Positions 146-4,255 of a DNA stretch of 64,000 nt are shown here, in pieces. This DNA is from Xanthomonas sp. NCPPB 1128. GTDB lineage: Bacteria; Pseudomonadota; Gammaproteobacteria; Xanthomonadales; Xanthomonadaceae. Below the pieces are notes generated by a model. That model was not told the DNA's origin. It ran no database searches and was given only the letters and a program-made list of their open reading frames with translations. Each line of letters begins with the position of its first letter. The first letter of the stretch is position 1. The DNA is taken from NCBI RefSeq assembly GCF_001043115.1, contig NZ_LFME01000013.1, positions 1 through 64,000 on the forward strand. Reading direction: 5' to 3'. Both the position numbers and the translations under genes were made by a program.

Positions 146-592
146 CTACATCGCCTGTTCGATCGACAGCGCGTAGACCTGCACGCCGTAGCGGCTGAAG
201 GTGGCGGTGGTGTCGCTGCCGATGTTCATCTCCTCCAGCGGCGTACCCTGCGCGTCGGCGAGGGTGAGCCGATAGATCGGTCCGAAACGGGTGGCGATAT
301 CGGTAGAGCTGATCTTCACCCGGTAGGTACCGTTGCCCTTGAGCGCCAGCGGCTCGGAGAGTTGGCCGGGGATCAGCTGCAGGTCGGTCGACGGCTGGCG
401 CAGGTCGCCGAGGACCTGCACCGCGAAGGTCTGCGTCTCGGGAAGCGCGCGGCCAATGGGGGACGCCGTCTGCGGAGCGCCGGCACCGATTGCCGCGGCA
501 GATGCAGCCGCGGCAGGAATCATCGCAGCAATTGCAGTCGCAGCGGTGCCGAAGAGGAAGCTGCGGCGGCTATCGTTCGTATGCGTTGTCAT
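146..592 (-). CDS. Tat-exported small protein of the RiPP-like operon, function unknown
   Basis: A 148-residue protein. The N-terminus has a twin-arginine signal (SRRSFLF near residue 8) and a long Ala-rich hydrophobic stretch to about residue 38, so export of a folded or cofactor-bearing protein is likely. The mature part, about 105 residues, is beta-rich with no Cys and no motif I recognise. An AGGTGG Shine-Dalgarno precedes the ATG at 592. It starts 24 bases after the stop of a Cys-rich precursor and is the last gene of the four-gene minus-strand operon. A role as carrier, protease partner or immunity factor for the peptide is inference from position only. Confidence 0.8.
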   Translation of the reverse strand: MTTHTNDSRRSFLFGTAATAIAAMIPAAAASAAAIGAGAPQTASPIGRALPETQTFAVQVLGDLRQPSTDLQLIPGQLSEPLALKGNGTYRVKISSTDIATRFGPIYRLTLADAQGTPLEEMNIGSDTTATFSRYGVQVYALSIEQAM

Positions 593-616: not shown

Positions 617-874
617 TCAGCCCTGGCCTGGGCCTGGGTTGGGGGTGATGCAGGAACCTTTGTTAGTGCAGTTGGTGTTGCTCCCTAACGAGCAGTCCTT
701 CGTGTTCGTGCACGCCGGGTTGGTGCCATTGCAGACCTCGTTGGTGGCCAGCGTGCCAAAGCGCCGTGTTGCCAGTGCTTCGACTGCAGCGGCGGTAGAC
801 GCCTCTGATCTGTCGAACAGCACTTCTGCATTCTTGCCGAGCGATATTTTGTCTGGATCTATGCGGATTGGCAT
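617..874 (-). CDS. Cys-rich RiPP precursor peptide 1 (candidate)
   Basis: An 85-residue peptide from the ATG at 874; an upstream in-frame TTG lies inside the radical SAM gene and is less likely. The first 45 residues are Cys-free and leader-like (DPDKISLG near 6, helical Ala-rich middle). The C-terminal core holds five Cys at residues 48, 55, 61, 69 and 75 in a Thr/Asn/Gly-rich context, including CTNTKDC and CTNKGSC (CX5C units), and ends in a Pro/Gly tail. It begins 11 bases after the radical SAM stop. Leader and core both resemble the second precursor at 1879-2148. Modification type (thioether, C-C crosslink or other) is not readable from sequence. Confidence 0.7.
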   Translation of the reverse strand: MPIRIDPDKISLGKNAEVLFDRSEASTAAAVEALATRRFGTLATNEVCNGTNPACTNTKDCSLGSNTNCTNKGSCITPNPGPGQG

Positions 875-885
875 TGGGATGCATC

Positions 886-1869
886 TCAGGTGCTTGCCAA
901 GGTGGAAAGCGGGCAACCAAGCGTTTGTTCGGAGAGATCGGAGAATCCGCTCATCCAGCGACGCAGCTTGTCGTTTTCGATGTCGATGGTGCCGTCAGCG
1001 TGGAGGCGCCCGAGGTCGTTGCGATCATCGTTGAGCGCGACGGTGCACTTGCCGATCTTCCCGTTGGCGCGAATCATCAGCGAGTTCGGTTTTGCCGCAT
1101 AACAGATGTACCCATCCAGGTGCTCTTCCGAAATCGGGCGCTGGTCCTTGGACGGATGTTTCGTGCACGCGGTGATGTAGGCGATGGCTTCCAGGTAGCG
1201 GTCTCGCGGCAACACCTTTTCTTCGATCGTGCCGCCTGCGCTCAGATTCGAGACCTTGTGAAAGTAGACCGAGAACCGTGGATCGTCGAGCAGCTCACGA
1301 TGCAGGCTGGCATAGAGGCGTCGTACCGATTCGATGTTGCCCTGGTGCAGGTGCAGCCGCAGCGAGATGGCGAAGTTCGCCGCCAGCGAGCGGTAGGCAA
1401 TGAGGTTCGACCATATTTTCTCGAACGTGGCGCCTTTGTTTGCGGTGATCCGTGTCCTGTCGTGCCATTCCGCATCGCCGTCCAGCGTGATCTGGAACTC
1501 ACGGTGCTGGAGTTCAGTCAACCTTTGCAGTAGAGCCGGTTCCAGCAGGTAGCCATTGGTGGTAAAGCCGGCACTGAATGCAACCCCATGTTGTGCGCAT
1601 ACTGTGTTTGCGTGTTGACCGATCTCCAGGACGACATCGCGCGCCAGGAGTGGCTCCCCGCCGAACCAGGAGATGTTGAGCCGATCCAGGTGCGGTACGC
1701 GATGGGAGATCAATGCCTTGATGCCGCTGACCACACTCGGCTGCATACGGCCTATTGCAAAGTCTTCATAGCAATATGTACAGCGGAAATTGCATTTTTC
1801 GGTCGGCAAAAGGATGAGGGACAGGATGCGCGGAGAAAGCGCCTCGGCGATGGTGGCTTCGCTCAGCAT
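886..1869 (-). CDS. Radical SAM enzyme with partial SPASM-type C-terminus, RiPP maturase candidate
   Basis: A 327-residue radical SAM protein. The [4Fe-4S]-binding CX3CX2C motif is CNFRCTYC (Cys 26, 30, 33), followed by WFGGEPLL and the FTTNGYLL strand of the radical SAM barrel. The C-terminal part has a SPASM-like Cys followed by GKIGKC, then a last Cys in GCPLST eight residues before the stop. The usual final CX2CX5CX3C block is missing, so the auxiliary cluster region is shortened (Twitch-like or truncated SPASM). It sits between two Cys-rich small genes with 9- and 11-base gaps, the arrangement expected for a peptide-modifying enzyme. Substrate assignment is inference from that context. 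Confidence 0.85.
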   Translation of the reverse strand: MLSEATIAEALSPRILSLILLPTEKCNFRCTYCYEDFAIGRMQPSVVSGIKALISHRVPHLDRLNISWFGGEPLLARDVVLEIGQHANTVCAQHGVAFSAGFTTNGYLLEPALLQRLTELQHREFQITLDGDAEWHDRTRITANKGATFEKIWSNLIAYRSLAANFAISLRLHLHQGNIESVRRLYASLHRELLDDPRFSVYFHKVSNLSAGGTIEEKVLPRDRYLEAIAYITACTKHPSKDQRPISEEHLDGYICYAAKPNSLMIRANGKIGKCTVALNDDRNDLGRLHADGTIDIENDKLRRWMSGFSDLSEQTLGCPLSTLAST

Positions 1870-1878
1870 CGGCGTGTC

Positions 1879-2148
1879 TCAGCCGTTTGGCGAAGGCTGG
1901 CCGCCGGCTCGACAAGAACCGACATTGGATGCTTTGGAACAGTCACCTGTGTTGTTGCAGGTGTAATTCGTGGAGGAGCAGGTGCCGGAGTTGGTGCACG
2001 TTCCGGCATTTTCGCCCATCGGGCGAATGGTTCCCGCTGTCGCCGAAGCGATCGCCGCGGCGCGCAATCGATGGTTGGCGAAGTTGATCGACCCGTCCGG
2101 ATTCAACGTAATGCCGCGGGGATCAATATCGTGAAATGCCTTGTCCAT
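1879..2148 (-). CDS. Cys-rich RiPP precursor peptide 2 (candidate)
   Basis: An 89-residue peptide. The ATG at 2148 is chosen because GAGAGG lies just upstream. The leader (1-49) is Cys-free with DPRGITLNPDG near 9, echoing DPDKISLG in precursor 1. The core has five Cys at residues 51, 57, 64, 70 and 79, with CTNSGTC and CNNTGDC as CX5C units and many Asn, Thr, Ser and Gly. It is the first gene of the minus-strand operon and ends nine bases before the radical SAM start. Two non-identical precursors with the same Cys count and leader motif, flanking one enzyme, argue for real substrates rather than chance frames. Confidence 0.72.
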   Translation of the reverse strand: MDKAFHDIDPRGITLNPDGSINFANHRLRAAAIASATAGTIRPMGENAGTCTNSGTCSSTNYTCNNTGDCSKASNVGSCRAGGQPSPNG

Positions 2149-3780: not shown

Positions 3781-3895
3781 GTTGGGTGGCCGGCAAGCGG
3801 GGTTGGTGCTGGGTGGAGCACGGCGCGTAGGGGTGGGTTCAGGCGCCTACGGTTCGTAGGACGCGTACCAGTTGTCCTAGATCGTATTGGCCGTC

Positions 3896-3960
3896 GTAGG
3901 AGCGGCTTCAGCCGCGACGGGCTTTCCCGGTGAAGCCATCGCGGCTGAAGCCGCTCCTAC
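3896..3960. repeat. REP-like inverted repeat, copy 1
   Basis: GTAGGAGCGGCTTCAGCCGC and its reverse complement flank a short spacer, giving a long hairpin. The same unit recurs at 4137, 25495 and 25646. This is the dispersed extragenic palindrome familiar from Xanthomonadaceae genomes. The 514 bases between the PadR start and the next gene hold only the operator, this copy and the next. Confidence 0.85.
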
Positions 3961-4136
3961 AGGAGGCGATTGCGATGGCGATCGCATGCCGTGCCGCTCC
4001 CCTGTTCTGATGTCGCTGTTGCATCTAACCCAGGGCGTCGTCCAACGCCTGCGTCGCGTGGGATACCGTCTTTGGTGTATGTCGGCGCGAGAGCAAGAGT
4101 GCGTCGCGAAGGTGTATGCCAGCCGGCAGCACCCTT

Positions 4137-4202
4137 GTAGGAGCGGTTTCAGCCGCGACGGGCGTTACCGGTGAGGCCTGTCGCGGCTGAAGCCGCTCCT
4201 AC
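4137..4202. repeat. REP-like inverted repeat, copy 2
   Basis: The same palindromic unit as copy 1, with one base change in the left arm (GGTTTCAGCC for GGCTTCAGCC). It ends about 50 bases past the 3' end of the STAS gene and could act as a transcript end for that operon. Confidence 0.85.
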
Positions 4203-4255
4203 GAAGAGCAAAAAACGCAAAGGCCGCGGGCGTACCGCACAGACGCCGCCTTGCC

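What the first reader, a model, noticed from the sequence alone, without database searches (positions are those of the whole stretch)
617..2148. RiPP locus with two related Cys-rich precursors flanking one radical SAM enzyme
Seen: two small genes, each with a Cys-free leader sharing a DPxxIxL element and a core with five Cys in a Thr/Asn/Gly-rich context built around CX5C units, lie 9 and 11 bases from a gene with CX3CX2C and a reduced SPASM region. Established: radical SAM/SPASM proteins modify Cys-rich peptides (sactipeptides, ranthipeptides) and aromatic peptides (cyclophanes). Inference: the product is a crosslinked peptide; the CxNxGxC-type core fits no class I can name.
Basis: partly seen in the sequence, partly recalled or inferred. 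Interest (0 to 1): 0.85.

Follow-up and report, generated by a model that had tools for sequence, protein, structure and literature searches.

The report
Asn-Cys thioether peptide gene cluster
A Xanthomonas genome carries two small genes for asparagine- and cysteine-rich peptides around one radical enzyme that probably stitches every cysteine to an asparagine three or four residues before it, a many-ringed version of a link so far reported for single-ring streptococcal peptides.

Summary
In detail: precursor A, a 327-aa radical SAM enzyme and precursor B lie 9 and 11 bases apart on the minus strand; a Tat-signal protein gene follows. The four genes recur in other Xanthomonas and, with a weakly similar Tat protein, in Luteimonas; A-enzyme-B also occurs in a Dokdonella bin, a Planctomycetota bin and a viral-collection contig. 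A and B evolve under purifying selection. In 26 cores of this type 138 of 147 cysteines, and the first cysteine in 26 of 26, have an Asn 3 or 4 residues upstream (shuffles: mean 46 and 8). That resembles the streptococcal NxxC peptide, whose enzyme NxxcB links the Cys sulfur to the beta-carbon of the upstream Asn (reviews). Homologous enzymes found here, some beside Rgg genes, sit next to small Asn-Cys peptides, though with mixed spacing. Best reading: a ranthipeptide-like product with up to five Asn-Cys thioether rings per peptide. New: many rings, alternating short and long Cys loops, two precursors in opposite phase, an enzyme with only three C-terminal Cys (Twitch-like), no Rgg, a Tat partner. 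Function unknown.

The parts
1879..2148 (-). precursor A (89 aa): Cys-free leader with IDPRGITL..DG motif, core with five Cys, loops 5,6,5,8
   Evidence: no NCBIfam match up to E 1, one sub-threshold Pfam match
1912..2010 (-). A core from the first Asn of an N-x3-C pair (N47) to the last Cys (C79): five N-x(2,3)-C pairs
   Evidence: coordinates counted
886..1869 (-). radical SAM enzyme, 327 aa, no N-terminal extension, Twitch-like C terminus
1771..1794 (-). CX3CX2C motif for the SAM-binding 4Fe-4S cluster (C26, C30, C33)
   Evidence: invariant in A1; 77 of 78, the exception being L071
913..1104 (-). C-terminal region with the only three conserved further Cys (C256, C275, C319-P320): probable single auxiliary cluster with an open site
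   Evidence: invariant in the 66 rows of A1; 78 of 78, where L050's third Cys comes from a tail that looks frame-shifted
617..874 (-). precursor B (85 aa): leader with IDPDKISL motif, five Cys, loops 6,5,7,5, phase opposite to A
650..742 (-). B core from N45 to C75: five N-x(2,3)-C pairs
   Evidence: coordinates counted
146..592 (-). 148-aa protein with Tat signal, fourth gene in the Xanthomonas copies; weakly similar protein at the same place in Luteimonas (L006); role unknown

Best explanation
A and B are RiPP precursors. The radical SAM enzyme recognises the shared leader motif, removes a hydrogen from the beta-carbon of each core Asn and joins that carbon to the sulfur of the Cys 3 or 4 residues downstream, perhaps held on the open iron of a three-Cys auxiliary cluster. 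Up to five small thioether rings (-10 Da) would form per peptide, giving a regularly stapled rod-like peptide. Shown: the genes, their conservation, the N-x(2,3)-C rule and homology to enzymes beside small Asn-Cys peptides. Inferred: crosslinking, attachment at the beta-carbon, substrate ligation, shape. Not addressed: function, leader protease, exporter, role of the Tat protein.
For: First Cys preceded by Asn at -3/-4 in 26 of 26 cores (shuffles: mean 8.0, maximum 16 of 2000) and all Cys in 138 of 147 (mean 46.1, maximum 62); the last Cys has Asn at +2/+5 in only 4 of 26, which favours upstream pairing. Four of these cores, from viral-collection contigs and not used to define the rule, obey it at 20 of 20 Cys. 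In 34 hand-picked cores of other family members the only clearly enriched Asn offset is -3 (50 against 18.1; 0 of 1000 shuffles). Literature: NxxcB links Cys23 to the beta-carbon of Asn20 (PMC8326336, PMC13361665; passages). In a genus that I infer to be Streptococcus (genomes unnamed), profile A1 finds enzymes in 19 of 247 genomes at E 4e-71 to 8e-79 over most of the profile; 18 of their 19 loci have a small Cys peptide beside the enzyme, and L112 and L114 an Rgg regulator. The L112 peptide has Asn20-xx-Cys23. Selection. Three C-terminal Cys. The leaders hold no Cys, so a ligand on an open iron would come from the core.
Against: No chemistry was tested. Six of the window's ten pairs are N-x3-C, not N-x2-C. 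Nine of 147 Cys lack the Asn, and only 19 of 26 cores have a separate Asn for every Cys. The window enzyme is only 26-33% identical to the streptococcal-type ones, which carry the SPASM Cys (one has Tyr for the C-P Cys) and, except L102 and L103, an N-terminal extension. One search had pre-selected peptides with N-x2-C or N-x3-C. Unfiltered, of 11 distinct peptides the first Cys has Asn at -3 in five, at -2 in five and none in one (L117); L102 has no clear peptide. So that enzyme group is not purely NxxC, and which member is NxxcB is unknown. Leader-matched small Cys frames lie beside 38 of 80 loci at a lenient threshold, with an HMM built partly from those loci. B is lost or has lost a Cys in some Xanthomonas.
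Confidence: 0.58

Rival explanations
1. Same Asn-Cys pairing, but sulfur joins the alpha-carbon of Asn (sactipeptide type).
For: Asn is a known alpha-carbon acceptor in thurincin H and ruminococcin C (PMC8172795, passages); SkfB is a sactisynthase with a Twitch domain and an open site on its auxiliary cluster (PMC6231123, passages). Streptococcal QMP and GGG enzymes make small sactionine rings (PMC13361665, passages).
Against: In thurincin H and ruminococcin C the Cys lies upstream of its acceptor in a hairpin. The reported case with upstream Asn and N-xx-C spacing is beta-linked.
Confidence: 0.14
2. Each Cys pairs with a downstream Asn (C-x-N in short loops, C-x4-N in long loops), like the Cys-before-acceptor order of freyrasin.
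For: Asn sits at C+2 in 43 of 45 X4-X5 loops and at C+5 in 38 of 45 X7-X8 loops; PapB accepts Cys-Xn-Asp with n = 0-6 (PMC9413430, passages).
Against: The first Cys always has an upstream Asn outside the loops (26 of 26) and the last Cys rarely a downstream one (4 of 26). In other family cores only -3 is clearly enriched.
Confidence: 0.1
3. The peptides are disulfide-rich or metal-binding, and the enzyme does something else to them (epimerisation, C-C crosslink, oxidation).
For: Cys- and Asn-rich repeats alone could make a structural or metal-binding peptide; the enzyme is below the cut-off of each of the 25 NCBIfam models listed, so its reaction is not assigned.
Against: 17 of the 22 defining cores, 14 with five Cys, have an odd number of Cys and so cannot pair fully by internal disulfides. 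Among the relatives examined, full-length homologues sit beside small Asn-Cys peptides.
Confidence: 0.13

Closest known systems
Streptococcal NxxC RaS-RiPP (NxxcA/NxxcB; Caruso et al. 2019, cited in PMC8326336 and PMC13361665; original not held)
   Same: Asn upstream of Cys as the unit; homologous radical SAM enzymes beside small precursors in Rgg-bearing genomes.
   Different: There one thioether is reported per peptide and the family is tied to Rgg/SHP quorum sensing. Here five pairs per core, six of ten with x3 spacing, two precursors, three C-terminal Cys only, no Rgg homologue in the genome, and a Tat partner.
Freyrasin (PapA/PapB) ranthipeptide
   Same: Many small thioether rings on one peptide; the PapB model aligns with residues 15-190 (94.9 bits, cut-off 340).
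   Different: Cys-X3-Asp with Cys first (PMC8172795, PMC9413430, passages); the window cores hold no C-x3-D/E.
TIGR04463 family radical SAM/SPASM RiPP maturase (rSAM_vs_C_rich)
   Same: Best NCBIfam model (143.9 bits, residues 16-307).
   Different: Cut-off 525 not reached; that model is longer (438 positions).
SCIFF maturase CteB and sactisynthase SkfB
   Same: Radical SAM peptide enzymes with an open site on an auxiliary cluster (PMC6231123, passages). CteB (5wgg, identified from recall; the PDB entry says radical SAM domain protein) is the best PDB match, over the barrel only.
   Different: CteB has two auxiliary clusters and an RRE; in its structure the open site holds a leader Cys, while the window leaders have none.

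Membership tests
NxxC RaS-RiPP | N-x2-C in the core | tested here: met
   A has one and B three N-x2-C pairs, the other six N-x3-C (sequences; rule)
NxxC RaS-RiPP | enzyme is an NxxcB homologue | tested here: inconclusive
NxxC RaS-RiPP | Rgg regulator linked to the locus | tested here: not met
   0 Rgg matches in the own genome
NxxC RaS-RiPP | SPASM Cys set (CX2CX5CX3C) as in the streptococcal-type enzymes seen here | tested here: not met
   only three C-terminal Cys conserved in the window family against CX2C..C..CP in 18 of 19
Ranthipeptide | sulfur joined to a non-alpha carbon | not testable with these tools
   needs MS and NMR
PapB / freyrasin | Cys-X3-Asp or Glu motifs | tested here: not met
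   none in the A and B cores
PapB / freyrasin | NF047865 score at or above 340 | tested here: not met
   94.9 bits
TIGR04463 | score at or above 525 | tested here: not met
   143.9 bits
SCIFF | six Cys in about 45 residues, SCIFF maturase score above cut-off | tested here: not met
   five Cys in 28-29 residues; TIGR03974 51.9 bits, cut-off 425
Sactipeptide | sulfur-alpha-carbon link | not testable with these tools
   needs NMR

The most novel reading that the evidence does not exclude
A two-peptide system in which one single-auxiliary-cluster enzyme turns two phase-shifted precursors into regular rods of alternating short and long Asn-Cys thioether staples, working with a Tat-exported partner; one case of a multi-phylum family of poly-Asn-Cys thioether peptides in which the substrate Cys ligates the enzyme's open auxiliary cluster.
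Probability: 0.2. Interest if true: 0.78.

Novelty: new variant of a known kind. Interest (0 to 1): 0.6.

Why it matters
If right, the Asn-Cys beta-thioether, which the papers read here report for a single ring in streptococci, is a widespread chemistry used many times on one peptide, by smaller enzymes with one auxiliary cluster. That gives compact catalysts for stapling peptides at N-x(2,3)-C and a plain test of whether the open auxiliary iron holds the substrate Cys. The sequence rule also predicts ring positions from genomes.

Tried and rejected
The third auxiliary ligand rests on alignment: MAFFT puts C319 opposite the second Cys of CX2C with a gap before P320, while alignment A1 makes C319-P320 an invariant pair, which fits the C-P at the end of CX2CX5CX3C. 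Literature searches listed no paper on this locus; most subscription papers are not held, and PMC6622460 is not held. A network of this enzyme superfamily (PMC9062424, passages) may already contain these enzymes as an unnamed cluster; its supplement was not seen. A dedicated exporter was sought: the only C39 peptidase match in the own genome lies on another contig, while a neighbour group that holds a C39-ABC exporter (one member, L017, confirmed by Pfam) occurs in 30 of the 81 sources compared. CX5C and PapB/SCIFF-like readings were tested and dropped. The tree put repeat-type enzymes in one 13-row set (support 85/95, with L024 and L050, which lack a detected precursor); the larger tree did not resolve that set (L007 and L024 fall outside), so a single origin is not claimed. 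Of five viral-collection loci, L097/L098 (identical) and L099 gave precursors, L100 and L101 none. Homology of the Tat-like protein of L099 to those of the window and L006 was tested and not found. Rows dropped: L027, L076 and L080 from the enzyme set; near-copies L003, L004 and L083-L089 from the core counts; two earlier Cys of the second L020 precursor lie outside its core. The 22 and 34 cores were picked by eye, and the first-Cys Asn was noticed before it was counted.

Full report
What is there. On the minus strand, precursor A (1879-2148), a radical SAM enzyme (886-1869) and precursor B (617-874) lie 9 and 11 bases apart, followed by a 148-aa Tat-signal protein (146-592). Upstream lie genes for a siderophore-interacting protein and a PadR regulator, which look unrelated. 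The window begins at base 1 of its contig, inside what looks like an IS110-type transposase tail (1-108, label from recall), so the cluster's far side must be read in relatives.

Is it real? In the genus, 9 of 20 genomes match the enzyme at E up to 1e-30: eight full length including the own one, one fragment. A, enzyme, B and the Tat gene are collinear in L003, L083, L085-L087 and L089. dN/dS between the window and its orthologues is 0.045-0.163 for A, 0.045-0.142 for B, 0.061-0.110 for the enzyme and 0.062-0.243 for the Tat protein. All five Cys of A are kept in 8 of 8 aligned copies, those of B in 6 of 7 (one Tyr). The GPE 39 copy lacks B, and G001 has only pieces of the enzyme. Diverged A-enzyme-B sets occur in a Dokdonella bin (L005), Luteimonas (L006) and a Planctomycetota bin (L007), and in a contig of the viral collection (L099). 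The Tat proteins of the window and L006 are 26% identical (pairwise E 2e-5 without composition correction). L099 has a protein with a Tat-like start at the same place, but blastp finds no similarity to the other two. The system is rare: enzyme at E up to 1e-70 in 2 of 398 genomes of the phylum and 3 of 250 of the order, own genome included; the precursor profile found 3 of 369 genomes of the class, own included, one weak and one of another core type.

The enzyme. None of the 25 NCBIfam models listed reaches its cut-off; the best is TIGR04463 at 143.9 bits against 525. Of 78 aligned relatives (the window and 77 of 80 loci), 77 keep CX3CX2C (not L071, whose frame looks shifted). Three C-terminal Cys are in all 78 by alignment, though L050's third comes from a tail that looks frame-shifted: C256 and C275 in the C-x13-G-x4-C form of a SPASM start, and C319 followed by Pro; all three are invariant in the 66 rows of A1. 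Full-SPASM relatives have CX2CX5CX3C-P and a last Cys, so this enzyme seems to keep the ligands of auxiliary cluster I only. CteB, MoaA and SkfB show open sites there (PMC6231123, passages); in CteB the site holds a leader Cys, and the window leaders have no Cys. No structure prediction was possible.

The core rule. In 22 repeat-type cores (window and ten loci) loops between Cys alternate short (X3-X5) and long (X6 or more): 72 of 83 neighbours alternate against 48.4 in shuffles, 0 of 5000 as high. A cores of the window, L005, L006 and L099 have loop lengths 5,6,5,8 exactly, and window B starts in the opposite phase. Asn sits at -4, -3, +2 and +5 of Cys (0 of 1000 shuffles as high for each). 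The ends decide between upstream and downstream pairing. The first Cys, whose upstream Asn lies outside the loops, has it at -3/-4 in 26 of 26 cores (shuffles 8.0, maximum 16); the last Cys has a downstream Asn at +2/+5 in 4 of 26. Over all Cys 138 of 147 have Asn at -3/-4 (shuffles 46.1, maximum 62), never with another Cys between; 19 of 26 cores have a separate Asn for every Cys. Four of these cores came later from the viral collection and obey at 20 of 20 Cys. In 34 cores of other relatives, picked by eye, only -3 stands out (50 against 18.1). In two of the five L017 precursors the first Asn-Cys pair follows a GG motif, and L017 has a C39-ABC exporter gene, so that Asn would stay in the mature peptide (inference).

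What it matches. After this rule was found, reviews showed that NxxcB joins Cys23 to the beta-carbon of the upstream Asn20 (PMC8326336 and PMC13361665, passages; PMC11002830, passages; original not held). Of the 19 loci L102-L120, 12 passed a search for N-x2-C or N-x3-C peptides. Without that filter 18 of 19 have a small Cys peptide beside the enzyme; of 11 distinct ones the first Cys has Asn at -3 in five, at -2 in five and nowhere near in one. So the group is Asn-Cys rich but not purely NxxC. Among the eight loci laid out, an Rgg-like gene lies upstream in L111, L112 and L114, confirmed by Pfam for the last two; the L112 peptide has Asn20 and Cys23. The enzymes are 26-33% identical to the window's; 18 of 19 have the CX2C..C..CP Cys, and all but L102 and L103 a longer N terminus. 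CteB, by contrast, scores 105 bits over the barrel only.

Reading. The locus most likely makes two peptides with up to five Asn-Cys thioether rings each. It works like NxxC, but is not a plain member: no Rgg in the genome, no full SPASM, mixed x2 and x3 spacing, many rings, two precursors. Function, protease and exporter in Xanthomonas are open: the only C39 peptidase match in the genome is on another contig, and no exporter gene stood out beside L003 (read by eye). The loss of B in one species argues that B is not always needed. Interest rests on a clear, testable sequence rule and on a broad family of compact enzymes; it is held down because such a link is already known.

Noticed in passing
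L099 1481-2464 and 2722-4683: In a 5.8-kb contig of the viral collection A-enzyme-B and a protein with a Tat-like start sit directly after a gene that looks like a phage late-control (gpD-type) tail gene (read by eye), as if carried at a prophage edge.
   Followed up: partly
L097 4093-4374, 4694-4927: Another viral-collection contig (identical to L098 over this stretch) has the enzyme, two Asn-Cys precursors and downstream genes that look like permease components (read by eye).
   Followed up: partly
L093 1360-2077 (G371), L042 461-1233: Related precursors carry the Cys/Asn core in the middle, followed by a second leader-like segment of about 45 residues; layout unexplained.
   Followed up: no
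L014 7185-8790: Six small Cys-rich frames in a row behind one enzyme of this family, with diverse cores: a possible combinatorial precursor array.
   Followed up: no
L017 9731-10931: Four further precursors with the same leader lie beyond the exporter gene in Massilia sp. CF038, besides the one next to the enzyme.
   Followed up: partly
L020 5429-6445, L007 3017-4045, L027 7635-8651, L080: A protein of about 340 aa with a membrane-anchor-like start and no Pfam match (L020 copy tested) recurs near repeat-type clusters.
   Followed up: no
L113, L115, L119, L120, L111, L116, L109 (peptides beside the enzyme): Streptococcal-type relatives whose peptides have N-x-C rather than N-x2-C before the first Cys: perhaps a related ring size.
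   Followed up: no
window 3890-3965 and 4130-4205: Repeated palindromic GC-rich elements (GTAGGAGCGGCTTCAGCCGCGAC type) in the intergenic regions.
   Followed up: no
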